DNA from: an alpha proteobacterium SCGC AAA536-G10
Lineage (GTDB): Bacteria > Pseudomonadota > Alphaproteobacteria > Puniceispirillales > Marisalimonadaceae
Direction: 5' to 3'
Length of the DNA stretch: 64,000 nt
NCBI GenBank assembly: GCA_000384615.1
Contig: ARQU01000002.1
Coordinates: forward strand, 62,001 to 126,000
This document shows, in pieces, positions 7 to 16,186 of this stretch. Both the position numbers and the translations under genes were made by a program. Numbering within the stretch: the stretch's first letter is position 1; each line of letters starts with the position of its first letter. The notes under the pieces were generated by a model, which saw only the letters and a program-made list of their open reading frames with translations, ran no database searches and was not told the origin of the DNA.

Positions 7-2619
7 GTGGCAGTTGATTATTTAAGTGCGATAAATAACTCTGGAAGTGGGTTAAACATTACTCAAATTGTAGATAGTTTAGTAGATGCTGAAAAATCAC
101 CTCAAGAAAATATTATCCAAAATAAAATAGATGAAAATAATACCTCTATCTCCTCCATAGGTGAAATTAAAAGTGCTTTGTCTAAATTGTCTACGTCTCT
201 TACCTCTTTAACTGGTAACACTTCCTTAAAGACATCCTCTACAGGATCTTCTTTATCAGCGATAATAACCAATCCCTCAGATGCAAAAACAATAAACTCA
301 ACTATTAGTGTAACTACTCTTGCCAAAGGACAAACATTAGCATTTTCTGGATATTCATCAAATACGACAGTAGTTGGTTCAGGTTCTCTTAGCTTAGAAA
401 GAGGTGATTGGTCTTCAGGTAGCTTTGTTGCTAGTTCAACAGTATCGTCCACCTCTGTAACTGTTACATCAACCGATACACTTGAATCTTTAAAAGATAA
501 AATTAATGCTCTTGATTATGGGATTGTTGCAAGTGTAATCGGAGCTGGCGACGATACTTATACTCTTGTTATAAAATCTGGAGAAGGTAAAAAAAATGCC
601 TTAAGAGTAACTGCTACAGAAAGTCCTTCAGGATCAGGTTTATCTTCAATAGATAATACGTCAACAAATGGGTCTAAACAAAAAGTTGCTGGTACAGACG
701 CATCTTTAAGTGTTGATGGTATTTCAATAACTAGATCTACAAACAATATCACTGATTTATTTGAAGGTTATCAAGTGAATTTGTCAAATGTAACAAATTC
801 TACTGGAAGTGATATACCAGTAAATTTAACTAGTGCAGTTGACGAAGCTGCAGCAGAAACAAATCTTAAATCTTTTATAAATGCTATCAATGATGCTCGT
901 TCGATTATAAACGAAAAAACTTTCAGAGGTTCCGCTTCTAAAGAAGCTGGAGATTTATCTAGTGATCCTGTTATAAAAAATATTAAAAAAGAAATTGAAA
1001 ATCTTACCAGTACAGCATTATCAGGTTTTAGCAGTAATGGGGTATATATTTCAAATTTAGGAGTTAGAACTGAAAGAGATGGTAAACTATCCTTAAATAC
1101 AACAATTTTAAAAAATGAATTGAAAAACAACCCTACTTCTTTAGATGCAATTTTTAATTCTATGTATTCTTCATCTTCAAGTTTGTTAACCGTTAGTGGA
1201 GGATCCAATAAAGCACCAGTAGCAGGATCATATACATTTGTTATGACCGCTTTTGTATCTGGAAATGTTACAGGTTTAAAAAGTAATGATACATCTCCAA
1301 ATGTTACTGCCTCTAATAATACAATTCAATTAACTGTTGATGGTACTACCTCTGGAACTATTACAGTTCCAGCATCTCACTACAGCTCCGAAGATGCATT
1401 AGCGACCGCTATTCAAACTGCAGTCAATGCTGATACAACATTATCCAATGCTGGTAAATCTGTAACAATAACACATTCAGATGGTAGTTATAAAATAAGT
1501 TCTTCATCAACTGGATCGTCGACAAGCATGGTAGTAAACAATATTGGTTCAAATTTAAATGGTTTCTTAAAATTGACTGGAACAGCAGATGACAATGGTA
1601 TTTCAACTTCGCAATCTGGAACTGCTTCAACAGCATTAACTATTAACGGCGCGTCATCTGTCCCATCTGATACTGATGGATTAGTCGATAATGAAACTTT
1701 AGGGTCTTCAGGTGATTTCTCCATTGATGGAGCGTTACAATCGCAAGCAGCAAGTGGTATTAATTCATTTATTACTATATCAAGCGCAAGTAATAATGCA
1801 TCAGTAACCTTTACGGTTCATGGTACTAATATTGATGGAACTTCTATAAGTGAAACAATTACAGGCGTAAATAATAATACAGTTACATCTACTAATTTAT
1901 TTGCAACAGTAACAAGGGTTAGTTCTGATGCAGGTGCAAATGCTGTTAATGTAGGTAATTCACCTGCGATAGTAAAAACTACTGGAACAAGAGCCTCAAT
2001 AACAAGTGCAGGTAATGATGAAAGTTCAAATAGTTTTACAATTATAGGAACGGATTTATCTGGGGTTTCACAGACAGAAGTTGTAACAGGTCCAACTGCA
2101 AACGGAACTTCATTTGGAAGTAAAACCTTTAAAACAATTACTTCTATAACTCCGACAAATAATACGTCTGGCTCAATTAAAGTAGGTGTTACGTCTCATG
2201 GTATTACCACAGCCGGTGTTACAGGTTCAGCAACTCTTGATAGCGTCACTATGTCAGCAGATTCAAATAATCAGACATTTACAGCAATTTCAGGAAATGC
2301 AGCAGGTTTAAAAGTTAAATATTCTGGAGTAGGTGAAAATTCAACATTATTTTATGGTCAAAGTTTAATCGAAAAATTTTCAGATTATTTAACTAATATA
2401 CTTAATACTACAAATGGACAGATAGCAACTAGGGAAACAACAATAAGTCAAGAAGTAACAGATCAATCAGCTTTATTAATTGACTTAAATACACAAATGG
2501 AATCTCTTAGGTCAAGATACATCGAACAATTTACTGCCATGGAGCAGGCAGTTACAAGTTTAAAATCAACGGGTGAGTATTTAACTAATTTATTTGAAGC
2601 TATGAACAAAGATGACTAA
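7..2619 (+). CDS. fliD: Flagellar filament cap protein FliD (HAP2), enlarged
   Basis: FliD caps the growing flagellar filament outside the cell and guides flagellin insertion. The N-terminus carries the FliD_N signature, with GLNITQIVDSLVDAE at about residues 15-29. The last 80 residues form the heptad-rich FliD_C end that contacts the filament. At 870 aa it is much longer than common FliD proteins (about 450-650). The extra length is a Ser/Thr/Asn-rich, beta-type surface region, roughly residues 400-770, that includes two tandem copies of a module also found in flagellins 1 and 2. The start is taken as GTG at 7 because MAVDYLSA is a typical FliD beginning. The frame stays open to the window edge (only two codons), so an upstream start cannot be excluded. 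A Ser/Thr-rich exposed domain would suit glycosylation by the neighbouring GT41 enzymes (inference). Confidence 0.93.
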   Translation: MAVDYLSAINNSGSGLNITQIVDSLVDAEKSPQENIIQNKIDENNTSISSIGEIKSALSKLSTSLTSLTGNTSLKTSSTGSSLSAIITNPSDAKTINSTISVTTLAKGQTLAFSGYSSNTTVVGSGSLSLERGDWSSGSFVASSTVSSTSVTVTSTDTLESLKDKINALDYGIVASVIGAGDDTYTLVIKSGEGKKNALRVTATESPSGSGLSSIDNTSTNGSKQKVAGTDASLSVDGISITRSTNNITDLFEGYQVNLSNVTNSTGSDIPVNLTSAVDEAAAETNLKSFINAINDARSIINEKTFRGSASKEAGDLSSDPVIKNIKKEIENLTSTALSGFSSNGVYISNLGVRTERDGKLSLNTTILKNELKNNPTSLDAIFNSMYSSSSSLLTVSGGSNKAPVAGSYTFVMTAFVSGNVTGLKSNDTSPNVTASNNTIQLTVDGTTSGTITVPASHYSSEDALATAIQTAVNADTTLSNAGKSVTITHSDGSYKISSSSTGSSTSMVVNNIGSNLNGFLKLTGTADDNGISTSQSGTASTALTINGASSVPSDTDGLVDNETLGSSGDFSIDGALQSQAASGINSFITISSASNNASVTFTVHGTNIDGTSISETITGVNNNTVTSTNLFATVTRVSSDAGANAVNVGNSPAIVKTTGTRASITSAGNDESSNSFTIIGTDLSGVSQTEVVTGPTANGTSFGSKTFKTITSITPTNNTSGSIKVGVTSHGITTAGVTGSATLDSVTMSADSNNQTFTAISGNAAGLKVKYSGVGENSTLFYGQSLIEKFSDYLTNILNTTNGQIATRETTISQEVTDQSALLIDLNTQMESLRSRYIEQFTAMEQAVTSLKSTGEYLTNLFEAMNKDD
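1750..2200 (+). repeat. Tandem surface module in FliD (shared with flagellins 1 and 2)
   Basis: Two copies of a roughly 70-75 residue beta module lie at about residues 581-731 of FliD. The pattern is: INSF-I-T-I, then FT[IV].GT[ND].DG, then ETITG or EVVTG, then T.LFATVTR or KTFKTITSI, then a closing [VI].VG. The same two-copy arrangement, in the same order, occurs in flagellin 2 and in diverged form in flagellin 1. This was seen directly by comparing the translations. Its likely role is an exposed outer domain. Confidence 0.75.
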
Positions 2620-2636
2620 ATAAAATACTTTTATTT
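2618..2636 (+). terminator. Possible weak terminator after fliD
   Basis: AAATAAAA and TTTTATTT form a perfect inverted repeat around a 3-base loop, starting inside the fliD stop codon and followed by more T. It contains no G-C pair, so a strong hairpin is unlikely. It is recorded as a weak candidate only. Confidence 0.25.
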
Positions 2637-2779
2637 TATCACCAATAGATAAATTATTATTGTTTTTCTCTTTAAAAGTGTATCCAAATTTATATTAAAA
2701 TTTTAAGTCATGTTTTTTAATTAGTTTTAATTTACATGAAATTTTATAAAAAATATTAAATATAATTCATAATCTGATA

Positions 2780-5401
2780 CTAACTTTCGTTAAATATTTG
2801 AATATATGCTTTTTCAATTTTTGTAGTAAAATTTTGCCCATCACAGAGTACTGAATTTTTTAATCTAACTCTCAGTTCATTTTGGTATGACTGTAGTCTG
2901 TTAAAATTTTTAGATAATTGTTTAGCTTTATAGATATAATCATCTACATCTTCTGCAATCAATTCGTTAAGATTTAAATTTCTAAGGATACTGGTCCCAA
3001 CTCTTGATACGTGAGCTTCACCAGTAAGAGTAATGACAGGAACTCCCATCCATATAGCTTCCATTGTTGTAGTTGCACCATTAAACTGAAAAGTATCTAG
3101 ACAAATATCAACCATATTGTACATAGCCAAGTGACCATGGGTAGATTTTATAAAGGGTAAAAGTTTAATTCTATTAATATCAACATCATTTTCTTTAAAA
3201 AATTTAATAAAATCTTCAGTTTTTTGTTCTGATGTAAATTGATGAGATTTTAAAACTAATTGTGAATCTGACACATTTTTTAAGATTGCAATCCATGCTT
3301 TTAAATTCTTCTCCGTTATTTTTGATATGTTATTAAAGCTTCCAAATGTAACAAAACCATTAACTTCGAATGGTTTAGTTTTTGAAATTGCAGTATCACA
3401 AGAGTTTTTATAACATAAAAAACTATCTTCTATTCTATATAGTTTTTCTGTATAGAAGTTTTCAGATGTGTTGAGAGGGTCTACTGTTATATCTGTAAAT
3501 TTATAGTCTATCGAACTTAAACCAGTAGTCGCGGGATATCCAAGCCAGGATATTTGCTTGAAGGCAGGTTTTTTTCTAAAAATCTCCAGACGGTTCCCTT
3601 TTGTATGTCCTGATAAATCAACTAAAATGTCAATTCTATCATTTTTAATTAAATTTAATAGATAATCATCATCAAATTCGTAGACATTTCTCCAATTTTT
3701 ACAATAACCTTGTAGAATTTTATTTTTATCATCAAATTTATTATTGTTATAATAAGTAAAGATTTCAAATTTATCTAAATTATGATTTTCAATTAAAGGC
3801 TCAAAAAAGTATCCTACTGAGTGATAATTCAAATCTGCTGAAACATATCCAATCCTAATCTTTAAATTTTTATTTTTTCTAATTTTTATTTTTGTGCTTT
3901 TATTATCTTTCCCAAAATATTTATGCATTTCAAATATCTTTTGAGGAGATAATTCATCAGAATACAATGATGTTAATAAGTGCGAGGAAATTTGTTGTGG
4001 AGTAATTTTCTCTGTATTTAATTTTTTGTGTATCTCTCTAAGGTAACTTTTGTTTGTTTCGAGATTGTTATATTTTGAATTATTGATTAAAAGATCGAGC
4101 TCAGGATTTTGATTACCTAGACCTTTAGAGGTTATTAATGCTTCTAAGGCTTCATTTGTTCTTCCGTGATTTAAACAAAATAAGCCATAATTAAACCACC
4201 CAAGGTATGAATTTGGATTAAGTTTAATTGCATTGTGATAGTTTTCTAAACATTTGGGAATATCATTTTTATGACCATAACACATAGCTAATAAATTATA
4301 GGGATTAAAAAAATCTTTATCTATTTCAATTGCAGATTTACAATATCTGATAGATATATCATATAAATTTTGGTTGTGATAACTTAGTGCTATATTATAT
4401 AAAATTTCTTTATTTTTAGGGTTTAAAGTTTCTGCTTTGGTGAAGTAAAGATTGGCTTTTTCATAATATCCTATATGAGAATTAAGATTGCCTAAGTTAT
4501 TTAATAACTTAATATTATTTGGATATTCAGCCAATGCTTTTTCATTAATTTCTAAAGATCTTTTTATCTTTCCGCATTCGAACAAACATAAACCATAATC
4601 TATTAAACTAGAATTATCTAAGTAATTATTCTTAAAACCGTTTTCAAAAATTTTTAGAGCTTCATCATATATTTTTAATAACATTAATGTTAATGCTTTA
4701 TTATGGTTCAGTTGAGCTGAGTTTTTATTGTGTATCAATCCTTTATTGTATAAAGATAGAGCTTCTTCGATTTTATTCATTCCCAAATATGCGTTTCCGA
4801 GATTACAAAACCCTTTATCTGCATAAGATTTAGATAAAGTTAATTTAGTTGCAAAATATACAGCCTCTTCATGTTTACTCATTAAGTTATAAAGACTAGA
4901 TATTTTTATAAGAGCTGTAACAGATTCAGGATCGATTTTTAATGCTTCTTTATATTTTTCAACAGCTTTTAAATAATTCCCATTTTTTTGGAGTGCATCT
5001 CCAAAATTAATTAATAATTCTTTATCCTGACCATATTGTTTTATTGCAATTTTGTAGTTATTTAAACTTTCTAATAACTTATTTTGTTTAATTAGGCATA
5101 AACTTAGAATTATATATATTTTTTTTGAATAAAAATTTGATTTTATTAATTCCTTAGAATGTTTTTCACACTCAACATATTTTTGATCATTAAATAGTTT
5201 CTTAATTTTGTATATTTTATTGTCTATGAACTTTGAGTTGTTAGGTAAGTCAGCGTGAGTATTATTTAAATTGAGCTTTGTTTTTAGATTATAATATAAA
5301 TAGTCATTTTTTTTTAAATTTTTTTTCGGCAAATCACATTTTTCATTTAAGCCTATGTTATAATGTAAATTCTCAGATCTTTTTTTTGAATTTTTGTGCA
5401 T
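2780..5401 (-). CDS. TPR-repeat GT41 (OGT-like) glycosyltransferase 1, candidate flagellin glycosyltransferase
   Basis: The protein has a long N-terminal TPR superhelix (about residues 60-440, many A..Y..AL....N copies). A C-terminal GT41/SPINDLY-type catalytic domain follows (about 513-873). Diagnostic segments are RIGYVSADLNYHSVGYF, ILVDLSGHTKGNRL, QISWLGYPATTG, FGSFNNISKI and the sugar-nucleotide region LDTFQFNGATTTMEAIWMGVPV. GT41 enzymes transfer GlcNAc or related sugars to Ser/Thr in the cytoplasm, and the TPRs choose the protein substrate. The gene sits between fliD and flagellin 1, so Ser/Thr-rich flagellin or FliD is the natural substrate (inference, by analogy with TPR glycosyltransferases such as Caulobacter FlmG). 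ATG at 5401 is preferred over the upstream TTG at 5434 because GGAAAAAAG precedes it. The sugar cannot be told from sequence. Confidence 0.88.
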   Translation of the reverse strand: MHKNSKKRSENLHYNIGLNEKCDLPKKNLKKNDYLYYNLKTKLNLNNTHADLPNNSKFIDNKIYKIKKLFNDQKYVECEKHSKELIKSNFYSKKIYIILSLCLIKQNKLLESLNNYKIAIKQYGQDKELLINFGDALQKNGNYLKAVEKYKEALKIDPESVTALIKISSLYNLMSKHEEAVYFATKLTLSKSYADKGFCNLGNAYLGMNKIEEALSLYNKGLIHNKNSAQLNHNKALTLMLLKIYDEALKIFENGFKNNYLDNSSLIDYGLCLFECGKIKRSLEINEKALAEYPNNIKLLNNLGNLNSHIGYYEKANLYFTKAETLNPKNKEILYNIALSYHNQNLYDISIRYCKSAIEIDKDFFNPYNLLAMCYGHKNDIPKCLENYHNAIKLNPNSYLGWFNYGLFCLNHGRTNEALEALITSKGLGNQNPELDLLINNSKYNNLETNKSYLREIHKKLNTEKITPQQISSHLLTSLYSDELSPQKIFEMHKYFGKDNKSTKIKIRKNKNLKIRIGYVSADLNYHSVGYFFEPLIENHNLDKFEIFTYYNNNKFDDKNKILQGYCKNWRNVYEFDDDYLLNLIKNDRIDILVDLSGHTKGNRLEIFRKKPAFKQISWLGYPATTGLSSIDYKFTDITVDPLNTSENFYTEKLYRIEDSFLCYKNSCDTAISKTKPFEVNGFVTFGSFNNISKITEKNLKAWIAILKNVSDSQLVLKSHQFTSEQKTEDFIKFFKENDVDINRIKLLPFIKSTHGHLAMYNMVDICLDTFQFNGATTTMEAIWMGVPVITLTGEAHVSRVGTSILRNLNLNELIAEDVDDYIYKAKQLSKNFNRLQSYQNELRVRLKNSVLCDGQNFTTKIEKAYIQIFNES

Positions 5402-5478
5402 CTTTTTTCCATTTATTTTTACCAAGATCTGCAAAAGTTATACCATTTAAATAAAGATAAAATGATTTTATAAAATTC

Positions 5479-5504
5479 TAAACAAATTTTAAGTGTGTCG
5501 TAAT
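5479..5504 (+). promoter_or_regulatory. Sigma-28-like promoter candidate for flagellin 1
   Basis: TAAA (5479-5482), 14 bases, then GTCGTAAT (5497-5504). This resembles the FliA consensus TAAA-N15-GCCGATAA. The same block (TAAACAAATTT..., then GTCGTAAT) precedes flagellin 3 and no other gene here. No sigma-54 -24/-12 pair is present upstream of this gene. Confidence 0.5.
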
Positions 5505-5544
5505 GATTATCAAGAACACCCTTACAGGGTCAATTTTAATCATT
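5502..5544 (+). promoter_or_regulatory. Nested inverted repeats in the flagellin 1 upstream/leader region
   Basis: The outer arms AATGATTA (5502-5509) and TAATCATT (5537-5544) are perfect complements. They enclose a tight hairpin ACCCT-TAC-AGGGT (5518-5530). The Shine-Dalgarno GGAG starts three bases after the outer arm (5547-5550). In RNA the structure could occlude the ribosome site. In Caulobacter, FlbT acts on the 5' UTR of a flagellin mRNA, so post-transcriptional control is plausible. If the promoter call is right, the outer left arm overlaps the -10 and only the inner hairpin is transcribed. Confidence 0.5.
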
Positions 5545-5557
5545 TCGGAGAACTTAA

Positions 5558-8308
5558 ATGAATAGCATAAATACTAATATGAGTGCGCTTACCGCTCAGA
5601 AAAATATGCAAGCTCAGAATAATGAATTAAACGAGGCAATGACACGCTTATCCTCTGGTTTAAGAATTAATTCTGCAGCAGATGATGCAGCTGGTTCTGC
5701 AATCGCAAGTAAAATGGAAGCTCAAGTTAGAAGTTTGGATGTTGCAGTAAGAAATTCTTATGATGCTATATCCATGACACAAACTGCTGAAGGTGCTCTA
5801 GGTGAGATGGAAAATATCTTGCAAAGAGTTAGAGAATTATCAGTACAAGCTGCTAATAGTACTTTATCTGCCAATGATAGAACACAGATTCAGACTGAAG
5901 TTGATACTCTAATATCAGAAGTTGATAACATTGCTTCTAAAACTCACTTCAACAATGTTAAACTTTTAGATGGTACTAATACTGATGTTACATTTCAAAT
6001 CGGGATTAATAGTACTGACAGTATTAAAGTTAATCTAGAACAGTCTGACTCTACTTCATTAGGACTAAATGCTTCTGTAGGTGTTAATAAACTGACCTCA
6101 GAAAGAATTGGTAAAGTTGACTACAGAGCAACTGCATATGGCACAATTGCAGTAGATGATGTAAAAATCAATGGTTTTAATGCTTTATCTGCAGCGTTTA
6201 CAACAGATTTAACAGTAGTAGCAACTAACACAGCAAAAGCTATTGCTGATGCTATAAATGCTAATTCTGGTGTTCATGGTGCTGAAGCCGACGCTTTTAA
6301 CTCTTTTACATCTGATGCTGTTGGTACTTTTAATCAATTAGGTTCTTTTACAATTAATGGTGACACAATTGAAACTGCCGCATCTTATGCTGGACTAGTA
6401 GCAAACATCAATGAGTCTGTTTCTGGGGTACAAGCTTCATTAAATGATGATAATACTATTACATTAACTAACACAAACGGTGATGACATCATTATTGCTG
6501 GTACAGCAGCTAACTCACAATCTGTTGGTTTTGGTGGAAACGCTACTTATACAGGTATGGTTTCTTTAGAAAACATAGATGGATCGGATCTTACTATTGA
6601 AGCTGGTAGTGTAGAAAATGGTTATACAGGTGGTTCTGGTACTATCGCAGATGTTAATGCTTTAGGTTTTAACGAATTCTCAGTTGCTGGTGCGCTTGAG
6701 ACTGCAGTAGTTAGTGGAACTGCTTTAAGCAATAATGAAATCAAGGTTAACGATGTATTAATAAGTGAATCACTTTCTGGTTCTGCTTATCATGTAGCAT
6801 CATCAATTAATGCAAAAACGTCAGAGCATGGTGTTACTGCAGATGCGCACAACAAAGTTAATTTAGATTTAGACTATGAAGCAAGACCAAGTACTGCGAC
6901 TGCCTTCGCTGTTAACGGTACGACTATTGATGTAAGAACTGCAAATAACTCTGCGGATTTTGTAACATCGTTTAATGCTCTAAATATTGGTGATCTAAGA
7001 GCATCAAGTAATTCAGACGGTACTGTTGATATTACAAGCAAGTCTGGTCTGGATATTGTTGTTTCAAATACTGACAATGACTTCGTAATAGCAGCTAAAG
7101 ACCTTCATGGATCTACTCTAAATACTGGTCTTGGTAATGGTACTTTTGACCATGATGGTATCCTAGATGGCGGTCAAGCTAACTCAGCACCTTGGAGTGC
7201 AGCTTCAACTGAATTACCTCTTTCAGGCGGAGCTTTAGCTGGTCAAGTTATTAATAGTCAGATATTAATCACTCAAAATACTACTCAAGATTATACTAGT
7301 GTAACTTGGACTATTACTGGTAAAAATGCAGACGGTGATACTATCACTGAAGCTCTTACTGGTTTAAACGTTGGTGCTAATGGTATGCATGATAAGATAC
7401 TTGGAACTACTGTTTTCCATACAGTGACTAAGATTGCAACCAGTGCTGCGATGACATACGAGTATGATATTGGTGTACATAGTACTCAAACAACTGAGTT
7501 TGATATTAACTCACTTAAAACTGCTGCAACTTTAGCATCTGCTGGAACAATCGCTCTTGAGAGTTCAGTCGCAACAACTGAGTTTAATAATGCAATTGTT
7601 ACTTTTCATAATACAACTGACCACTCAGCTGCTCCAATAACATTCACAATAACTGGTGAAGATGCATTTGGTGCAACAGTAACAGAAGCAGTGTCATATG
7701 GAAGCGAAAATATCCAGGATACAACTGTAACTGTTCATGGAACTCAAGCTTTCCACAAAATTACTACTATTCACGCAAGTGCTGGTACAACATCTGATCT
7801 TCAGATTGGTACTATGCAGGTTGGTGATGTTGTAAAAGCTAGAGGTAATATGACATTAACAAATGAAAAGGCTACACCGATTAAGGTAGAATCAGTTGCA
7901 AAGGATAGCAATGCGCTTAACCTTGCAGCTGGAGCAACTGGTACAATTATGGCCAAAATGGGTATACAAGCTCAAGGCGTGTCTTTTGAGGTATCAGGAG
8001 CTGGTGTTGATGTTTCTAGTTTATCTGGAGCCAATAGTTCTTTGGCTTTAATAGATAAAGCTATTGACAAGATATCACTATTTAGATCTTCATTTGGTGC
8101 TGTCGAAAATAGGATTGATGCTTCGATTAATAACTTAACAACTTTAAAAGTTAATACTCAAGCCGCACAATCAAGAATAGAGGATGCCGACTTTGCTGCG
8201 GAGACTTCAAGAATGACTAAAAGTCAGATTCTGTCTCAAGCTGCAACATCTATGTTAGCTCAGGCAAATGCATCTAAACAAAATTTATTAGCTCTTCTTC
8301 AAGGATAA
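5558..8308 (+). CDS. fliC: Flagellin 1, giant (916 aa)
   Basis: This is a structural subunit of the flagellar filament. The flagellin N domain (MNSINTNMSALTAQ, RLSSGLRINSAADDAAG, residues 1-140) and C domain (RIEDADFAAETSRMTKSQIL...LLALLQG, about 825-916) are both intact. They match the polymerising D0/D1 core of flagellins. The central region of some 680 residues replaces the usual short D2/D3. Its first half (about 185-515) is homologous to the centre of flagellin 3. Its second half (about 563-753) holds the diverged module seen in FliD and flagellin 2. A clear SD (GGAG) precedes the ATG, and a strong terminator follows. It probably forms a thick, decorated filament (inference). Confidence 0.95.
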   Translation: MNSINTNMSALTAQKNMQAQNNELNEAMTRLSSGLRINSAADDAAGSAIASKMEAQVRSLDVAVRNSYDAISMTQTAEGALGEMENILQRVRELSVQAANSTLSANDRTQIQTEVDTLISEVDNIASKTHFNNVKLLDGTNTDVTFQIGINSTDSIKVNLEQSDSTSLGLNASVGVNKLTSERIGKVDYRATAYGTIAVDDVKINGFNALSAAFTTDLTVVATNTAKAIADAINANSGVHGAEADAFNSFTSDAVGTFNQLGSFTINGDTIETAASYAGLVANINESVSGVQASLNDDNTITLTNTNGDDIIIAGTAANSQSVGFGGNATYTGMVSLENIDGSDLTIEAGSVENGYTGGSGTIADVNALGFNEFSVAGALETAVVSGTALSNNEIKVNDVLISESLSGSAYHVASSINAKTSEHGVTADAHNKVNLDLDYEARPSTATAFAVNGTTIDVRTANNSADFVTSFNALNIGDLRASSNSDGTVDITSKSGLDIVVSNTDNDFVIAAKDLHGSTLNTGLGNGTFDHDGILDGGQANSAPWSAASTELPLSGGALAGQVINSQILITQNTTQDYTSVTWTITGKNADGDTITEALTGLNVGANGMHDKILGTTVFHTVTKIATSAAMTYEYDIGVHSTQTTEFDINSLKTAATLASAGTIALESSVATTEFNNAIVTFHNTTDHSAAPITFTITGEDAFGATVTEAVSYGSENIQDTTVTVHGTQAFHKITTIHASAGTTSDLQIGTMQVGDVVKARGNMTLTNEKATPIKVESVAKDSNALNLAAGATGTIMAKMGIQAQGVSFEVSGAGVDVSSLSGANSSLALIDKAIDKISLFRSSFGAVENRIDASINNLTTLKVNTQAAQSRIEDADFAAETSRMTKSQILSQAATSMLAQANASKQNLLALLQG
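7245..7815 (+). repeat. Diverged FliD-type surface modules in flagellin 1
   Basis: Two copies of the T[IV]TG....G......EA[LV] ... TVFHTVTKI or QAFHKITTI ... IG pattern occur here, longer and more diverged than in FliD or flagellin 2. They are inserted after the part shared with flagellin 3, making flagellin 1 look like flagellin 3 plus this block. Confidence 0.6.
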
Positions 8309-8323
8309 TTTGGAGATATAAGG

Positions 8324-8353
8324 AAAAAAACCACTCGAAAGAGTGGTTTTTTT
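8324..8353. terminator. Rho-independent terminator, bidirectional
   Basis: The stem ACCACTC / GAGTGGT has a GAAA tetraloop, flanked by an A-run on the left and a T-run on the right. This makes a terminator in both directions. It ends flagellin 1 transcription and abuts the stop codon of the convergent glycosyltransferase 2. Confidence 0.9.
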
Positions 8354-10606
8354 TTATTTTATTTTATCAAACATTTTATAATATTCTTTTTCAATATTCT
8401 GAGCAAACAACATTCCATTGCATAAATAAGAATTCTTAATTTTATCTCTCAGATTTTGTCTTAGATCAATAAGTTCATTTTTGTTTTCTATGGCTTCACT
8501 TCCTTTTTTGACAAAATCTTCTTCATCTGAAGCAATGTATTTATCCATTCCCAACACTTTAAGTACACTAGTTGAAACTCTTCCATGGTGTGTTTTTCCA
8601 GTAATTGTTAGGACAGGGACACCCATCCATAAAGCTTCAAGTGTAGTTGTGGCTCCATTGAATGGAAAAGTGTCTAATGCTAAATCTATATGGTTATATA
8701 ATTTTAAATGATCTTCACCAGTCATAGTTTTAGTGAGAATGTTAACTCTGGAACGATCTATATCTTGTCTTTCAAACTTTCTTAATAAATTTTCGTTAAC
8801 TAATTTATCTGCAGCTGTGCTTGATTTGAGTAACAAACGACTATTTTTATTTTGTTTTAAAAGTTTAGACCAAGCTCTTATTGTTTTTAAAGTAACCTTA
8901 CTCATATTATTAAAACTTCCAAATGTAAAAGTTTTATTCATTATAAAAGGAGGGTTATTTACGCTATAAACGTTGGTACCAGTATAACACAAAAATGTAT
9001 TTGGAAGGCGAATTAACTTTTCAGTATAATATTTATCCTCATTTTTATTTGGGTCAGCTTCAAATGTTGTAAATCTATAATCTATTGACTTTAATCCCGT
9101 TGTTGTAACATAACCAAGATAATTCACTTGTACAGGTGCAGGTTTTCGTGCAAAAATTTTAGATTTTCCACCTGCAAAATTACCAATTAAATCAACTAAT
9201 ATGTTAATATTATCTTTCTGGATTAGATTAATAATTTGTTCATCGTTTAGATCTTGTACTTCTCTCCATAATGTAGCAGTAGATTTAAAATGTGTCGTTA
9301 TTTCATCAGGTCGACCCGACATATTAGAATATAAAACTATATCAAATTTATCTTTATTATGATGAACCAAAAGCTGATTAAAAAAATATGCTACAGAATG
9401 GACTCTGAAATCAGGAGAAAAGTAACCAACCCTAATTTTACCATTTATTTTAGATTTTTGTTTTTCTAAGAAAGTATGATTAGATTTGTCATCAAATATT
9501 TTTGTGTATTTTCTATGTTCATCATAAATTTTTTTTAAATCGTCTGTTATATAAGTTAGGTTACACATATAATTTTGATAAATATCATACTTATTAGTAA
9601 ATTTTTGTGATTCCATATAATATTTATATGCTAACTTGTTTTCTCCTATTCTAACATAAGCATTAGCAATATTATTTAGTGGCCAACCTTTTTCGTCATC
9701 GTCAAGATAAATAATAGATTTTTTGTATAACTCTATAGCGTGGTAAATCTTTCCATATTGATGTTCAATCCAACCTAGTGATAACCAATGATTTCCATCA
9801 TGAGGATTTAATTTTACAGCAGAGATCAGATACTTCTTTGACTCTGGAATTTTATTTAGATTTTTTAAGATAGACGCAATATTAGAATATCTAATATCAT
9901 TCATTGGCTCTATTTCAAGTGCTTTTATTGAAAAGTTTAAAGCCTCTTTTAAACTTGCTGTTTTTACTAAAGCAGAAATTAAATTTTCTAATACACTTAA
10001 ATCTCTAGGAAGTTTTTTATGTAATATTTTTAATTTGTCTATGTAATACCTAATGTCATCATTTGTAGCATTAGGCATTGCATGAAGCCTAAAAATTGTT
10101 TCGTTATTATACTCATCAACCTCAAGTATTTCCTTCCTAAGGATATAAGAATTTTTTAGATCACTATTCTTTTCATATGCAGTTGCAAGATTCATTTTTA
10201 TTTGGATATTCTTAGGGCTTAATTTTAATGATTTTTCAAATGTATCTAAAGCTAATTTATTTTCACCATTATCAATATAAACTAATCCTAAATTATTTAG
10301 GATTATACCATCCTTTTTTAGTGATAATGCTTTTTTAAACGATTTTATTGCCTCATCATTTCTTTCTTGGCCAAATAAAGATAATCCTAAAAAGTTATAT
10401 GCATTTGGCGAATTATTATAATGTTTAGCAAATTCTCTCGCTAAAATTTCTGTTTCTAAAAATTTACTTTTAGAATGTAAATCATCAAGTTCAACTAAAT
10501 ATTGATCTTCTGTTTTAACTAAATTATTTATGTTTTGATTATTTAAGAGAAGGTTACTTCTAAAATCTTGTTGTATCGTTTCATTATTTTCATCCAAATG
10601 AGTCAT
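8354..10606 (-). CDS. TPR-repeat GT41 (OGT-like) glycosyltransferase 2, candidate flagellin glycosyltransferase
   Basis: The architecture is as in the paralogue at 2780-5401 but shorter (750 aa). TPRs span about residues 45-340. The GT41 catalytic domain spans about 390-750, with RVGYFSPDFRVHSVAYFF, ILVDLIGNFAGGKS, PVQVNYLGYVTTTG, FGSFNNMSKV and LALDTFPFNGATTTLEALWMGVPV. It lies 28 bases downstream of flagellin 2 on the same strand with no visible terminator between them. It is therefore probably co-transcribed from the flagellin 2 sigma-54 promoter, the strongest contextual link in this window between a GT41 enzyme and a flagellin. The two paralogues differ enough to suggest different substrates (flagellin types or FliD). 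Transferred sugar unknown. Confidence 0.88.
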   Translation of the reverse strand: MTHLDENNETIQQDFRSNLLLNNQNINNLVKTEDQYLVELDDLHSKSKFLETEILAREFAKHYNNSPNAYNFLGLSLFGQERNDEAIKSFKKALSLKKDGIILNNLGLVYIDNGENKLALDTFEKSLKLSPKNIQIKMNLATAYEKNSDLKNSYILRKEILEVDEYNNETIFRLHAMPNATNDDIRYYIDKLKILHKKLPRDLSVLENLISALVKTASLKEALNFSIKALEIEPMNDIRYSNIASILKNLNKIPESKKYLISAVKLNPHDGNHWLSLGWIEHQYGKIYHAIELYKKSIIYLDDDEKGWPLNNIANAYVRIGENKLAYKYYMESQKFTNKYDIYQNYMCNLTYITDDLKKIYDEHRKYTKIFDDKSNHTFLEKQKSKINGKIRVGYFSPDFRVHSVAYFFNQLLVHHNKDKFDIVLYSNMSGRPDEITTHFKSTATLWREVQDLNDEQIINLIQKDNINILVDLIGNFAGGKSKIFARKPAPVQVNYLGYVTTTGLKSIDYRFTTFEADPNKNEDKYYTEKLIRLPNTFLCYTGTNVYSVNNPPFIMNKTFTFGSFNNMSKVTLKTIRAWSKLLKQNKNSRLLLKSSTAADKLVNENLLRKFERQDIDRSRVNILTKTMTGEDHLKLYNHIDLALDTFPFNGATTTLEALWMGVPVLTITGKTHHGRVSTSVLKVLGMDKYIASDEEDFVKKGSEAIENKNELIDLRQNLRDKIKNSYLCNGMLFAQNIEKEYYKMFDKIK

Positions 10607-10634
10607 ATTCTACCCAGTTTAATATTAAATATTT

Positions 10635-12839
10635 TTAATTTTGAAGAAGTTGCAATACATTCTGCTGAGCTTTGCCTGCTTGAGCGATCATTGCCATAGC
10701 TGATTGTTGAAGTATTTGCGCTTTAGTCAGTCGTGCAGATTCTTTAGCAAAATCTGCATCTTGAATTCTTCCTCTAGAAGCATTCGTATTTAAAGCGACG
10801 TTTGATAAATTATCAATTGCTTTTTCCATTCTACTCATTAAAGCACCTAACTTAGCTCGTTCCTTATGGATTCTATCTAATGATCTATCAAGAACTCTCA
10901 AAGCATCAATTGAAGATTGTCTTGTTTTTACATTTACTGCAGATAATTTGTCTAATGATGCAGCACCTGGTGACGCTTCAAATAATCCTTTGCCATCTTC
11001 ACCAACAACAGTAAAACTATTACTTGAAGACATTTCAAGTTGTCCTGTTACAATAACTGAATCTGCTGCTTTTACACCTATAGTGATCGCACCTGTTGTT
11101 GCCGCTGAAGTAGTAACTGTATTTATAGTTCTAAAAATCTGCCTTCCTGTTACAGTTGCGTTTGCTGTCGGGCCCGTAATAATCTCGGTTAAACTTGTAC
11201 CATCCATACCAGTACCAACAACTGTAAATGTTTTTCCACTTTCATCACTTGCTGAACTAGTAATTGTTACAAGGGCACTTTGATTTACAATTGTATTTAA
11301 TTTTCCAACTGTTATGTCAGCAGCTACACTTCCGCTTACAGCAATTTGAGAAACTGTTCCAAAAACCTTTGTACTAGTTACAGTAGTTGCACTTGCAGCA
11401 CCAGTAATAATTTCTTCTTGGGCATTACCATCAACATCTGTACCTGTAACTGTAAATGTTCTTGAACTAGCATCAGCATCGCTTGTAATTGTTAAAAAGG
11501 AATTTATTGTTTGAGTTGCGCTAACCAAAGTTAAATTAGCTGCACCAAATGAATCCAGCGCTTGTGTTGTTACTATTGCATTTGCACTTGTTGCAGAGCC
11601 AGGTCCCGAACCAGTGAATGCTGTTGGGGTTGTTGTACCAACTTTACCACCAATTGTAATTATACCTCCAGGTGTTCCTGTATAAATGCCGTCAACATCA
11701 GTAGTTGTCGCACTAGTATCACCTAATAATACTGCGTTTCCGGCGACTACTTCGTCATTATCAAGACTAGTGACCATTAAAGTTCTTCTTGAGCCAGTTG
11801 TAGTAGTGTCGCCGTCAAAATTGACTGTTCCAAGTTTTATGTCATAACCTTCATTTTGAACCATTATTATAGATGATTTATCAGTTGAAAGAGTTGCTGT
11901 AATGCCAGTAGTAGTTGTATAATTATTAATAGAATCTCTTAAATTAGATAAAACAGAACTAGCCTTATTATTATTTAGTGTAATATTTGCAGCGATAGTT
12001 GTTGCAGTTGCGTTTTTACCCTGAATACTAAATGACAAGCTGGTCTGACCATTATAGGCATCATCTAATGACTTGGCTTCTAGTTTTAATTGAGTAGAAG
12101 CAATAGCACTAACACCAGTTGCATTAAATACTGCATTGACTGATGTAGCAATATCTCTAACGTTTGATCCAGCAGCTGCCGTAACACCGGAACTTCCCAA
12201 TATTCCGTGAATTGTAAAGGTTTCTGCTTGGACTAAATTTGTTTCAGTTGTGTCTGCGACTGCGTAAGCATTTAATGCTAAGTTATCATTTTTTCCTGAC
12301 GTATCTGTCCCATCTGACTTAGCTTTATATGCTCCTAGTGAATCCAATCTCATTGATGAGATTGATAGTGAAGCAAATTCTCTCTCGTGTGTTCCTATTT
12401 GAAAACGTCTATCAGCAAAAGAGCCGTCTAAAACAGCAATCTCATTGAAAGTTGTATCTCTTGTTACTCTATCTAATTCAGCCAACATCTGAATAACTTC
12501 TGCATCTAAATATGATCTTTCTTCAGCATTCATAACATCAGAAGCTGATTGGATGGCTAATTCTCTAATTCTTTGTAAAATGGCTGAAGATTCATCTAAT
12601 GCACCCTCAGTAACTTGTGCCATTGATATAACGTCAGCTGCGTTTCTTACAGATTGCTCTAATCCTTTAATTTGAGCTGTCATTCGATCTGCAATTGCCG
12701 CTCCAGCTGCATCGTCACCTGCATGATTTATTCGTTTACCCGATGATAAACGTTCCATTGCCTGAGTCATATCACGTTCTGTGACTGTCATCTTATTCAG
12801 CGCAAACATTGCTGCACTGTTAGAATTTACTGTTGGCAT
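10635..12839 (-). CDS. fliC: Flagellin 2 (734 aa), sigma-54 driven
   Basis: The N domain (MPTVNSNSAAMFALNKM, RLSSGKRINHAGDDAAGAAIADRM) and C domain (GRIQDADFAKESARLTKAQIL...NVLQLLQN) are complete. The central insertion of about 480 residues carries two clean copies of the module shared with FliD. The N domain differs from those of flagellins 1 and 3, so this is a distinct paralogue rather than a recent copy. The start is set at 12839: the in-frame ATG twelve bases earlier overlaps the SD (TGGAG), which is ideally spaced for the second ATG. A -24/-12 promoter lies 35 bases upstream. Glycosyltransferase 2 follows in the same direction. Confidence 0.94.
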   Translation of the reverse strand: MPTVNSNSAAMFALNKMTVTERDMTQAMERLSSGKRINHAGDDAAGAAIADRMTAQIKGLEQSVRNAADVISMAQVTEGALDESSAILQRIRELAIQSASDVMNAEERSYLDAEVIQMLAELDRVTRDTTFNEIAVLDGSFADRRFQIGTHEREFASLSISSMRLDSLGAYKAKSDGTDTSGKNDNLALNAYAVADTTETNLVQAETFTIHGILGSSGVTAAAGSNVRDIATSVNAVFNATGVSAIASTQLKLEAKSLDDAYNGQTSLSFSIQGKNATATTIAANITLNNNKASSVLSNLRDSINNYTTTTGITATLSTDKSSIIMVQNEGYDIKLGTVNFDGDTTTTGSRRTLMVTSLDNDEVVAGNAVLLGDTSATTTDVDGIYTGTPGGIITIGGKVGTTTPTAFTGSGPGSATSANAIVTTQALDSFGAANLTLVSATQTINSFLTITSDADASSRTFTVTGTDVDGNAQEEIITGAASATTVTSTKVFGTVSQIAVSGSVAADITVGKLNTIVNQSALVTITSSASDESGKTFTVVGTGMDGTSLTEIITGPTANATVTGRQIFRTINTVTTSAATTGAITIGVKAADSVIVTGQLEMSSSNSFTVVGEDGKGLFEASPGAASLDKLSAVNVKTRQSSIDALRVLDRSLDRIHKERAKLGALMSRMEKAIDNLSNVALNTNASRGRIQDADFAKESARLTKAQILQQSAMAMIAQAGKAQQNVLQLLQN
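11080..11515 (-). repeat. FliD-type surface modules in flagellin 2
   Basis: Two tandem copies share the pattern INSFLTITS, FTV.GT..DG....EIITG, KVFGTVSQI or QIFRTINTV, closing IT[VI]G. Order, spacing and linker (ITSS..DES, compare ITSAGNDES in FliD) match the FliD pair closely. This implies recombination or co-evolution between the cap gene and this flagellin gene. Confidence 0.75.
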
Positions 12840-12873
12840 GTTAATCTCCAATTTATTTTCTCAGGAAATTACT

Positions 12874-14185: not shown

Positions 14186-16186
14186 ATGCTTAACATTGGT
14201 AATTTAACGGCTTCTCAATTTATTCAAAGAAATATGTCTAGTCAAATTAGAGAAATAACAGAAAGTACAGAAAGACTTTCCTCAGGTAAAAGAGTAAATA
14301 CAGCTTCGGATGATCCTTCATCACTAGGATCTATTTCAAAAATAAAATCGGATGTCTTATCTATTGGAAAAGCTATTCAAAATGGAGCAGAGGGAAAATT
14401 AATAACACAAACTGCAGATAGTGGTTTGAAAGAAATTAATAATTTATTAGCAAGAGTTAGAGAGCTAGCTGTCCAAGGTGGTAGCTCTACATTAACGACA
14501 GCGGATAGGACAACACTTCAAGTTGAAGTAGATGCTTATTTAGCTGAAATAAATACTATCGCCTCTATAGTTAAATTTAATACTACCAAGCTTCTCGATG
14601 GCTCTCTTGATAAAATAAGCTTGAATGTAGGTATACAAAAAGACACTAATATTGATATTAGCTTAGTTAAGTCAGATAGTTCGGCCCTAGGTTTATCAGG
14701 AGCATCTGGTGTGAAAGAATTTACTAGTGGTAGAGTAACAAGTTTCAATTACAGTAGTAACCTGGCTGCAAGTGATATTAAAATAAATGGACAAAATGCA
14801 CTAGCGGCAACACTTACAAGCAATCTTACTTCAGGCAATAATACTGCAACTGCACTTGTTACGGCGATCAATGCAAATACTAATACTCATGGTGCAGAAG
14901 CTACAGGTTTTAATAAATTAAATTCTGCAGCAAAAAGTTCTTTAAGTATGTCCAATACTTTTACTATAAATTCAAATACTATTTCTGTGCAAACAAGTCT
15001 CACAGATCTAGTTACTGAAATTAATCAAGAAGCTTCTGGTGTTATAGCAACGCTTAATTCAGATAACACTATAACTTTATCAAATACTACTGGAAATGAT
15101 ATAGTGATTGGAGGAAGTGCCCCAACTGATGCTGGTTTTACTGCAGGTACCTATTTAGGTTATATAAAACTTACTAATGTAGATAGTTCTTTTGTTAAAA
15201 TAGAGGCTATGACAAAGGCAAATGGTTATGCTTCTAATAGCGGAAACATAGATGATTTAGCTAGATTTGGATTTAACGAAGTTGACTCAAGTACAGTTAT
15301 TAGATCGGACTTGGTTTCAACTAATGCTTTAACAACATCTCATGATATAAAAATCAATGATGTCGATATTGGTGCATCTGATAGCGCATCTGCAGCAGCT
15401 AAAGCTATTGCTATAAACGCTGTTTCCTCATCGACTAATGTAACAGCTTCTGGAAATAATGTCGTTACACTCGATATTAATGTTGGAGAAGCTTCATCAG
15501 CTGGCTCCGATATAAGCATTAATGGAAATACAATCAATTTTTCAAGCGTAACTAATACTACTGAAACTATTACTGCAATAAACAACGCATCTATAGGCGA
15601 TATTATTGCTTCGGCTAATACTGATGGTGATGTTGAATTAACAAGTGCAAGTGGAGCTGACATAATAATAACTCATGCTGGTACGGCAGGCGTATTCATA
15701 GATGCTCATACTGATGCGACGGGAGCCACAATATCTGTTGCTGGATCAGGAAGTTCAGTAACCTTCAAAGGACAAATTTTATTAACCCATACTGCTGGAG
15801 ATGTAATCAAAATATCTGGAGATGATGTTGGTGAACTTGGACTGCAAGCTCAAGCGTCAAGTAGTGCCTCAACCCCAGGCTCTATTTTATCATTATCTTC
15901 TATTGCAAATTCTAATACTGCCCTTACTAATATTGACACGGCCATTGATACAATAGCTAATACAAGATCTAAATTTGGAGCAACTGAAAATAGAATAGAT
16001 CATCGTCTGAATGATCTTTTAAACACCAGAAATTTATCTAATAATAGATTATCGAAATTAGAAGACGCAGATTTTGCACTTGAAACAGCTAGATTGACTA
16101 AGGCTCAAATTATGTCAAAAGCCGCTTCATCAATGCTTGCCCAGGCTAACGCAAATGGTGAAGTTTTTTTAAGATTAATTAATTAA
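14186..16186 (+). CDS. fliC: Flagellin 3 (666 aa)
   Basis: The flagellin N domain is MLNIGNLTASQFIQRNM...RLSSGKRVNTASDDPSS and the C domain is KLEDADFALETARLTKAQIMSKAASSMLAQAN. The C-terminus ends NGEVFLRLIN, unlike the LLQ[GN] ends of flagellins 1 and 2. The centre (about residues 185-500) aligns with the first half of the flagellin 1 centre: D.KING.NAL, INAN...HGAEA..FN, LN.DNTITL.NT.GNDI, IGD[IL].AS.N.DG.V..TS.SG. Its stop overlaps by four bases the stop of the convergent fleQ-like gene. SD GGAGGAA precedes the ATG. Confidence 0.93.
   Translation: MLNIGNLTASQFIQRNMSSQIREITESTERLSSGKRVNTASDDPSSLGSISKIKSDVLSIGKAIQNGAEGKLITQTADSGLKEINNLLARVRELAVQGGSSTLTTADRTTLQVEVDAYLAEINTIASIVKFNTTKLLDGSLDKISLNVGIQKDTNIDISLVKSDSSALGLSGASGVKEFTSGRVTSFNYSSNLAASDIKINGQNALAATLTSNLTSGNNTATALVTAINANTNTHGAEATGFNKLNSAAKSSLSMSNTFTINSNTISVQTSLTDLVTEINQEASGVIATLNSDNTITLSNTTGNDIVIGGSAPTDAGFTAGTYLGYIKLTNVDSSFVKIEAMTKANGYASNSGNIDDLARFGFNEVDSSTVIRSDLVSTNALTTSHDIKINDVDIGASDSASAAAKAIAINAVSSSTNVTASGNNVVTLDINVGEASSAGSDISINGNTINFSSVTNTTETITAINNASIGDIIASANTDGDVELTSASGADIIITHAGTAGVFIDAHTDATGATISVAGSGSSVTFKGQILLTHTAGDVIKISGDDVGELGLQAQASSSASTPGSILSLSSIANSNTALTNIDTAIDTIANTRSKFGATENRIDHRLNDLLNTRNLSNNRLSKLEDADFALETARLTKAQIMSKAASSMLAQANANGEVFLRLIN

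What the first reader, a model, noticed from the sequence alone, without database searches (positions are those of the whole stretch)
1750..11515. One surface module shared by the filament cap FliD and two flagellins
FliD (about residues 581-731), flagellin 2 and, in diverged form, flagellin 1 carry tandem copies of the same beta module (FT[IV].GTD..G....E.ITG...F.T[VI]..I...VG). FliD and flagellin 2 keep the same order and the same linker. Cap and filament usually share no outer-domain homology. Exchange of a domain between them suggests a common selected surface, e.g. one glycan receptor, phage binding or adhesion. Similar repeats, as I recall, occur in structural proteins of marine phages, so acquisition from phage is a possibility to test.
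Basis: partly seen in the sequence, partly recalled or inferred. Interest (0 to 1): 0.8.

Follow-up and report, generated by a model that had tools for sequence, protein, structure and literature searches.

The report
Shared, swapped modules on SAR116 flagella
In a family of SAR116 ocean bacteria the tip, the base joint and the shaft of the flagellum carry copies of one roughly 100-residue protein module, which has been swapped and copied between these different genes and also occurs in probable particle proteins of phages, ocean phages among them.

Summary
FliD (two copies), flagellin 2 (two) and flagellin 1 (two, diverged) share a ~67-residue core, part of a ~100-residue module. The copy-rich protein lies outside the window: FlgK, the hook-filament junction protein, has seven. 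All 13 copies found in this (incomplete) SAR116 genome lie in these four proteins. FlgK, not flagellin 2, is FliD's closest partner.

Exchange between genes is visible in relatives: a FliD-type cassette (86% aa, 77% nt) sits as a clean insertion in one FlgK; a FlgK-type copy sits in a giant RTX protein; five FliDs carry a module at another site. Between close relatives single modules of FlgK and flagellin 2 drop to about 50% identity inside 90-91% identical proteins, with a jump at synonymous sites.

Phage proteins beside capsid genes carry the module, once as a block of about 110 residues in a structural protein; direction is unresolved. Other SAR116 families share other cap-filament stretches (6 of 17 loci, three genera; 1 of 31 elsewhere in the class). 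Fold and function are untested.

The parts
7..2619 (+). fliD, filament cap protein, 870 aa (FliD_N, FliD_C)
1624..1764 (+). leader of the FliD cassette (residues about 540-586), shared with FlgK and in part with phage copies
1765..1959 (+). FliD module 1 (residues 587-651)
1987..2190 (+). FliD module 2 (residues 661-728)
5558..8308 (+). flagellin 1, 916 aa
7262..7477 (+). flagellin 1 module 1 (residues 569-640), diverged
7592..7813 (+). flagellin 1 module 2 (residues 679-752), diverged
10635..12851 (-). flagellin 2, 738 aa
11301..11501 (-). flagellin 2 module 1 (residues 451-517); inside the stretch that differs sharply from the closest relative
11073..11276 (-). flagellin 2 module 2 (residues 526-593)

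Best explanation
The module is an outer-domain cassette of flagellar axial proteins. Cassettes move by recombination between strains and between different axial genes, and at least once between flgK and the gene of a giant RTX protein; phages have the same domain in probable virion proteins. Most likely the exposed modules diversify under pressure from agents that recognise flagella (phages, grazers), and copies spread to the less abundant parts (cap, junction) because an assembled surface that is alike is favoured. Shown by sequence: homology, copy distribution, gene-to-gene movement, sharp single-module divergence with a synonymous jump, phage homologues. Inferred: surface exposure (from the known layout of these proteins), recombination as the mechanism, selection, and what recognises the surface.
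For: 13 of 13 copies found in the genome lie in FlgK, FliD and two flagellins. All 35 genomes of the family with a fliD hit also have the module somewhere; of 34 fliD-bearing genomes of other families of the order one has it, on a contig that looks like contamination (G874 contig equal in length to that of L101). One relative's FlgK (G026) has a clean insertion of about 106 aa, 86% identical in protein and 77% in DNA (321 nt) to FliD cassettes of other relatives. A FlgK-type module sits in a 4228-aa RTX protein, 77% aa and 71% nt. FliD of G800 and G803 carries a module near residue 137 of the window FliD's numbering rather than in the C-terminal half, and it groups with FlgK modules (100/99). 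On a 98-row tree FliD needs 5 label changes, at least 4 forced by well supported branches. FlgK of the window genome and G035: 91% overall, 48% across module 4, 4-fold sites 13 of 41 inside against 660 of 856 outside (p 2.5e-9); flagellin 2: 90% overall, 51% across module 1, 14 of 39 against 175 of 289 (p 0.005). Six of 17 loci of other SAR116 families share another stretch between FliD and flagellin, against 1 of 31 elsewhere in the class.
Against: In the window's own genome no recent exchange is visible: FliD/FlgK 4-fold identity is 24 of 71, and the apparent closeness of this FliD pair to FlgK is not significant against one FliD clade (AU p 0.17 for the pair, 0.12 for module 1). The low-identity stretches were found by scanning; the two FlgK module-4 types are sisters in one clade, so fast divergence in place is not fully excluded, and in other flagellin 2 pairs the low stretch is often wider than the module. 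Window FliD against G035 FliD shows only a shallow dip (40-56% around module 1, 69% overall). Flagellin 3 carries no module. The six order loci come from three genera only. Most genomes are incomplete (51-100%) and many are single-cell or metagenome assemblies (titles).
Confidence: 0.6

Rival explanations
1. Binding function: the module binds a glycan or a surface, and was spread over cap, junction and filament to make the whole flagellum adhesive; the RTX protein and the phage proteins use it for the same purpose.
For: The same module sits in a giant RTX protein, in phage proteins including one of a tail-structure or structural protein family, and in a BNR-repeat protein of another genome of the class.
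Against: No described family covers the module in Pfam, PHROGs or NCBIfam searches. Invariant and nearly invariant columns are Gly, Phe and Glu, with no obvious binding site by eye. Flagellin 3 and several flagellin 1 proteins lack it.
Confidence: 0.25
2. Neutral shuffling: outer regions tolerate insertions, neighbouring genes with repeated modules recombine easily, and sharing between cap and filament is a by-product without selection for a common surface.
For: FliD, flagellins and FlgK lie on one contig within about 30 kb; copy number varies between species.
Against: In 31 loci of the class fliD also has a flagellin-like gene within about 10 kb, yet only 1 shares a stretch, while other SAR116 families do so with another stretch. 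All 35 family genomes with a fliD hit keep the module.
Confidence: 0.15
3. Direct acquisition from phage: the module entered SAR116 flagellar genes from a phage gene such as those of the HMO-2011 type.
For: Homology over about 100 aa (FlgK to L061 41% over 121 aa, E 2e-16 for the single comparison); the carrier L061 belongs by its capsid to the group of SAR116 phage HMO-2011 (69% capsid identity); the module is one block of about 110 residues there relative to phage CRP-9.
Against: Phage rows scatter in an unresolved part of the tree; the homologous proteins of HMO-2011, CRP-9 and CRP-212 lack the module and protein searches of GenBank phages found it in HTVC023P only; other families of the order lack it apart from one probable contaminant; GC3 shows no foreign signal in FliD or FlgK. 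Transfer could have gone the other way.
Confidence: 0.15
4. Artefact of low-complexity Ser/Thr/Gly composition.
For: FliD and flagellin 2 module stretches hold 35% Ser+Thr.
Against: Shuffled sequences of the same composition never exceed 8.5 bits against 15 to 102 for real copies; composition-adjusted E-values 6e-56 to 1e-8.
Confidence: 0.01

Closest known systems
Flagellin hypervariable region (D2/D3) diversity and turnover (PMC7018530; passages read)
   Same: Exposed outer region replaced by recombination between conserved ends; phage and immune systems proposed as drivers.
   Different: That survey concerns flagellin (the word FliD does not occur in the held text); here the unit is a single ~100-aa module within the outer region and it moves between FliD, FlgK, flagellin and an RTX protein.
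Giant flagellins with tandem DE repeats in Oceanospirillales (PMC6248924; passages read)
   Same: Large flagellins enlarged by tandem repeats of a domain in place of D2/D3.
   Different: The DE region was described in flagellins; FliD and FlgK do not occur in the held text. I did not compare the DE sequence with this module.
Flagellin_IN motif, Pfam PF07196
   Same: A motif of flagellar proteins; that it occurs in FliD homologues and is repeated there is recalled, not tested.
   Different: Hits in the window flagellins are weak (E 1.7e-4 to 0.05, all below cut-off), lie outside the module, and FliD has none at E up to 1.
Domain mosaicism of phage tail and receptor-binding proteins (PMC10684548; passages read)
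   Same: Exchange of protein fragments in phage proteins; the L061 insertion looks like such a case.
   Different: The held text has no word beginning with flagell; here the same module is shared with the bacterial flagellum.

Membership tests
FliD (filament cap) | FliD_N and FliD_C domains | tested here: met
   PF02465 E 5e-14, PF07195 E 2e-28
Flagellin | Flagellin_N and Flagellin_C | tested here: met
   flagellins 1 and 2, E 6.7e-44 to 3.8e-24
FlgK (HAP1) | FlgK_D1 helical domain, rod-type ends, position next to FlgL | tested here: met
   PF22638 E 5e-44, TIGR02492 above its cut-off, an ORF that I take for FlgL from its sequence and place follows at L008:14474; that ORF itself was not run against Pfam
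Flagellin_IN (PF07196) | match of the module to the profile | tested here: not met
   no match over the module in FliD, FlgK or flagellins
Described domain families (Pfam, PHROGs, NCBIfam) | a family covering the module | tested here: not met
   over the module only weak hits below or without a cut-off
Phage domain found here | homology over leader and core | tested here: met
   pairwise BLASTP E 1e-11, 2e-13 and 2e-16 for single comparisons; phage-only against flagellum-only profiles 99.3% over 69 columns of the core
Phage domain found here | same fold | not testable with these tools
   structure prediction switched off
Recombining flagellin hypervariable region | replacement of an outer segment between conserved flanks, synonymous divergence included | tested here: met
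   FlgK module 4 and flagellin 2 module 1, window genome against G035; no formal breakpoint test was run

The most novel reading that the evidence does not exclude
SAR116 flagella and the phages that meet them draw on one pool of exchangeable surface modules: the cell dresses cap, junction, filament and an RTX protein with cassettes from the pool, and phages display the same module on head or tail proteins, so that host flagellum and virus bear mutually mimicking surfaces in an arms race. Cap-filament matching would then be a selected principle that SAR116 families reached repeatedly with different domains.
Probability: 0.2. Interest if true: 0.9.

Novelty: new variant of a known kind. Interest (0 to 1): 0.72.

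Why it matters
Variation of the flagellar surface has been surveyed in flagellin (PMC7018530, passages). Here the same exchangeable module dresses cap, junction and shaft and moves between their genes, so cap and junction seem to take part in the same surface diversification. It gives a natural system for asking whether a filament and its cap must look alike, and links an ocean lineage to domains of phage proteins. In the listings of eight literature searches I saw no such case; these lists were capped at 10 to 15 titles with abstract starts, one search found no paper at all, and only open-licence papers are held.

Tried and rejected
Rejected: chance or composition (shuffles). Rejected: the module as Flagellin_IN. 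Not supported: recent gene conversion between FliD and FlgK in the window genome (4-fold 24 of 71; AU p 0.17 and 0.12). Not supported: a base-composition mark of foreign origin in FliD or FlgK (in flagellin 2 GC3 is 0.131 in the module stretch and 0.192 outside). Not supported: a fixed link with O-GlcNAc-type glycosyltransferases; the window has two GT41 genes beside these flagellins, but catalytic-half matches appear in only 7 of 24 relatives' regions searched, regions being partial. Led nowhere: FliD and FlgK queries against viral contigs (no relative confirmed), FliD and flagellin 2 queries against GenBank phages (none) and FliD against plasmids (none); a phage copy as query found one GenBank phage, HTVC023P. 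Solved structures: only hits with E 0.11 or worse. The first profile comparison of flagellar and phage copies mixed SAR116 rows into the phage side; it was repeated with separate sets. The first automatic search for FliD in class genomes missed most of them; it was redone from the coordinates.

Rows dropped before counts: two partial profile hits were not counted as copies (FlgK 493-539, flagellin 2 598-653). The 98-row tree used 12 selected genomes plus the phage, non-SAR116 and RTX rows, only copies of at least 92 aa, near-identical rows removed (243 to 111 to 98). Class survey: 40 of 47 fliD places were fetched; the seven left out were the window genome, G042 (already held), short or fragmentary FliD (G072, G204, G408, G200) and a second G119 place; 31 of the 40 had a flagellin-like gene. 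Order survey: 26 loci of 25 of the 34 non-family genomes with fliD; 17 had both genes. Part of the output (FliD rows) was cut and not seen.
Full report
The observation. Profile search in the axial proteins of this genome finds full copies of one module at FliD 587-651 and 661-728, flagellin 2 451-517 and 526-593, flagellin 1 569-640 and 679-752 and, outside the window, at seven places in a 2132-aa protein. That protein is FlgK: FlgK_D1, TIGR02492 above cut-off. It lies about 9.5 kb upstream of the window on the same contig. Two further partial hits (FlgK 493-539, flagellin 2 598-653) came in during profile iteration and I do not count them. A search of the held genome (90% complete) with the 13 copies returns those 13 and nothing else at E up to 1. 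Flagellin 3, FlgL and FlgE have none.

More than chance. A profile from FliD and FlgK copies scores 62 bits in flagellin 2 and 24 in flagellin 1; the best of 500 shuffles of each variable region is 8.5. BLASTP: FliD to FlgK 45% over 335 aa (E 6e-56), FliD to flagellin 2 45% over 146 aa (3e-27), FliD to flagellin 1 28% over 202 aa (1e-8). The FliD-FlgK match includes a leader upstream of module 1.

Who has it. Record titles of the nearest loci name the SAR116 cluster, and one locus comes from SCGC AAA536-K22, whose contig has the length of G035 C1. In the order 48 of 136 genomes match: 47 of the 58 listed for the window's family and 1 of 78 others (unlisted genomes all lack a match and follow in order of kinship). 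That one (G874) has it on a 10,341-base contig, the length of the contig of L101, with a fliD of the window genus's type beside a second fliD elsewhere, so contamination is likely. With fliD as control, 35 of 35 family genomes with a fliD hit have the module somewhere, against 1 of 34 others. In the class sample 5 of 385 genomes match, the window genome included (profile of the core only); in the phylum sample 2 of 398, the window genome included.

Copy number and site. In relatives FlgK has seven to nine profile matches, some partial; FliD one or two; flagellin 2 two or three; flagellin 1 none to three; some frames are cut by contig or locus ends. Five FliDs have a single module; in the two of them that I aligned, module 1 with its leader part and linker is what is missing. 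FliDs of G030, G800, G803, G813 and G815 carry a module at about residues 126-257 (164-284 in G800, whose frame starts further upstream) instead of the C-terminal half. Their bit scores against the first 390 residues of the window FliD are lower (122-179, against 432-552 for untruncated others), in part because the insertion splits the match; the first 135 residues are 45-49% identical in G800 and G803. A second FliD lineage with its own insertion site is a likely reading, not a proven one.

Movement between genes. FlgK of G026 is 81% identical to the window genome's FlgK and has about 106 residues inserted near residue 1620 of the latter. The insert is 86% identical to FliD of G025 (106 aa) and G007 (100 aa) and 82% to FliD of L101; DNA identity is 77% over 321 bases with G007, and the insert includes the FliD leader. 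No fliD was found in the G026 assembly, 63% complete. A 4228-aa RTX protein of G016 carries a module 77% identical to FlgK module 4 of G026 (104 aa) and 71% in DNA to the window genome's flgK over 303 bases. In a 98-row tree FlgK modules mostly group by position across genera, but FliD rows need five label changes, at least four forced by starred branches; the G800 and G803 FliD modules group with FlgK modules (100/99). The tree does not give the polarity of each move.

Replacement of single modules. Window genome against G035: FlgK 91% identical, but residues 1346-1477 (G035 numbering; about 1351-1473 in the window genome) only 48%; flagellin 2 90%, but residues 430-553 (G035 numbering) 51%. 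At 4-fold sites with conserved codon class FlgK has 13 of 41 identical inside and 660 of 856 outside (p 2.5e-9), flagellin 2 14 of 39 and 175 of 289 (p 0.005); G020 against G032 FlgK shows a trough at the same module, 18 of 44 against 540 of 800 with a second low stretch included (p 0.0005). Of 35 FlgK pairs at 80% identity or more, 11 show a long trough at module 4, 13 only other or shorter low stretches, and 11 none (my count from its list); the 11 contrast the same two module-4 types, so they are not independent. The two types are sister groups, so an import would be of a diverged allele. In other flagellin 2 pairs the low stretch is often wider than the module. The stretches were chosen by scanning, which makes the p-values indicative. 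FliD of the window genome and G035 shows only a shallow dip: 69% overall, 40-56% around module 1.

What did not hold. In the window genome FliD and FlgK copies are near saturation at 4-fold sites (24 of 71). The pair tree places this FliD beside FlgK (98/96), but a single FliD clade is not rejected (AU p 0.17; module 1 alone 0.12), and module 2 groups with other FliDs (93/84). So I do not claim a recent conversion here.

Phages. The flagellin 2 query finds 30 viral contigs. Profile hits: small proteins of about 196-209 aa, with one or two open frames between them and a major capsid gene in L043, L049, L051 and L068, the four in which I checked the capsid by PHROGs and Pfam; a protein of 316-323 aa with two tandem copies in L041 and L168, in L168 also one frame beyond a capsid gene; and a protein of 631-637 aa (two cut by the locus end) in L060-L066; for L061 its relatives are 'tail structure' or 'structural' proteins of HMO-2011-type and other phages. 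HTVC023P gp42 has a copy two genes after the capsid gene. Relative to CRP-9 gp48 the L061 protein carries the module as one block of about 110 residues between flanks 82% identical; the homologous proteins of CRP-9, CRP-212 and HMO-2011 have no profile match worth the name. L061's capsid is 78% identical to CRP-9's and 69% to that of HMO-2011, whose host is a SAR116 strain (record; passages of PMC9038755). Window or FlgK proteins match these phage proteins directly (E 1e-11, 2e-13, 2e-16 for single comparisons), and separate profiles match at 99.3% over 69 columns. That these are virion proteins is inferred from place and relatives. Outside SAR116, two giant open frames (L115, titled Sphingomonadales, and G712) have two copies each, a BNR-repeat protein (G415) and a 237-aa protein (G156; 56% identical to the L043 copy) one each, and G200 and G388 weak ones.

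A wider pattern. Other SAR116 families lack this module (with the exception above), yet in 6 of 17 loci with FliD and a flagellin-like gene nearby the two share another stretch, up to 47% over 222 aa (E 2e-54) in G825, and as little as 62-149 aa in G038 and G044. The six come from three genera (G821, G825, G826; G840; G038, G044). The G825 and G840 stretches are at best distantly alike (E 2e-4). In 31 such loci from elsewhere in the class one shows sharing (Fisher p 0.005, not corrected for kinship). FlgL-like genes count among the flagellin-like ones.

Reading. Known anatomy of FliD, FlgK and flagellin puts central inserts outside the filament core; this is established knowledge, not tested here. 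The likeliest account is an exposed cassette exchanged by recombination, diversifying under attack, with copies spread to cap and junction. PMC7018530 names phage and immune systems as possible drivers for flagellin variable regions (passages). What recognises the module is unknown. I put this account at 0.6, a binding role at 0.25, neutral shuffling at 0.15 and phage origin, which can coexist with the others, at 0.15.

Limits. No fold. Incomplete assemblies. Literature: listings and passages only, open-licence papers only.

Noticed in passing
window 2780-5434, 8354-10606; L009:2840-4924: Two TPR proteins with GT41 (O-GlcNAc-transferase-like) domains beside fliD and the flagellins, and a third related protein just upstream (30-31% to the others in the catalytic half); matches in only 7 of 24 relatives' partial regions.
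   Followed up: partly
L008:447-4271: Hook protein FlgE is 1274 aa long and has at least two copies of another repeat (around residues 617 and 699, I[SA]YTGKTATT).
   Followed up: partly
L193, L194, L255, L258, L260, L261: In other SAR116 families FliD and flagellin share stretches without sequence match to this module.
   Followed up: partly
L172 (G712) and L115: A 9496-aa and a 3085-aa open frame in class relatives (one titled Sphingomonadales) carry two module copies each.
   Followed up: no
L173:2211-4160 (same gene as L071:688-2637): A 650-aa BNR-repeat protein with one diverged copy of the module.
   Followed up: no
L101 / L169 (G874 contig of 10,341 bases): Contig with flagellar genes of the window family's type inside a genome assigned to another family, which has a second fliD: probable contamination.
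   Followed up: partly
window 14186-16186: A third flagellin without the module, while its neighbours have it.
   Followed up: no
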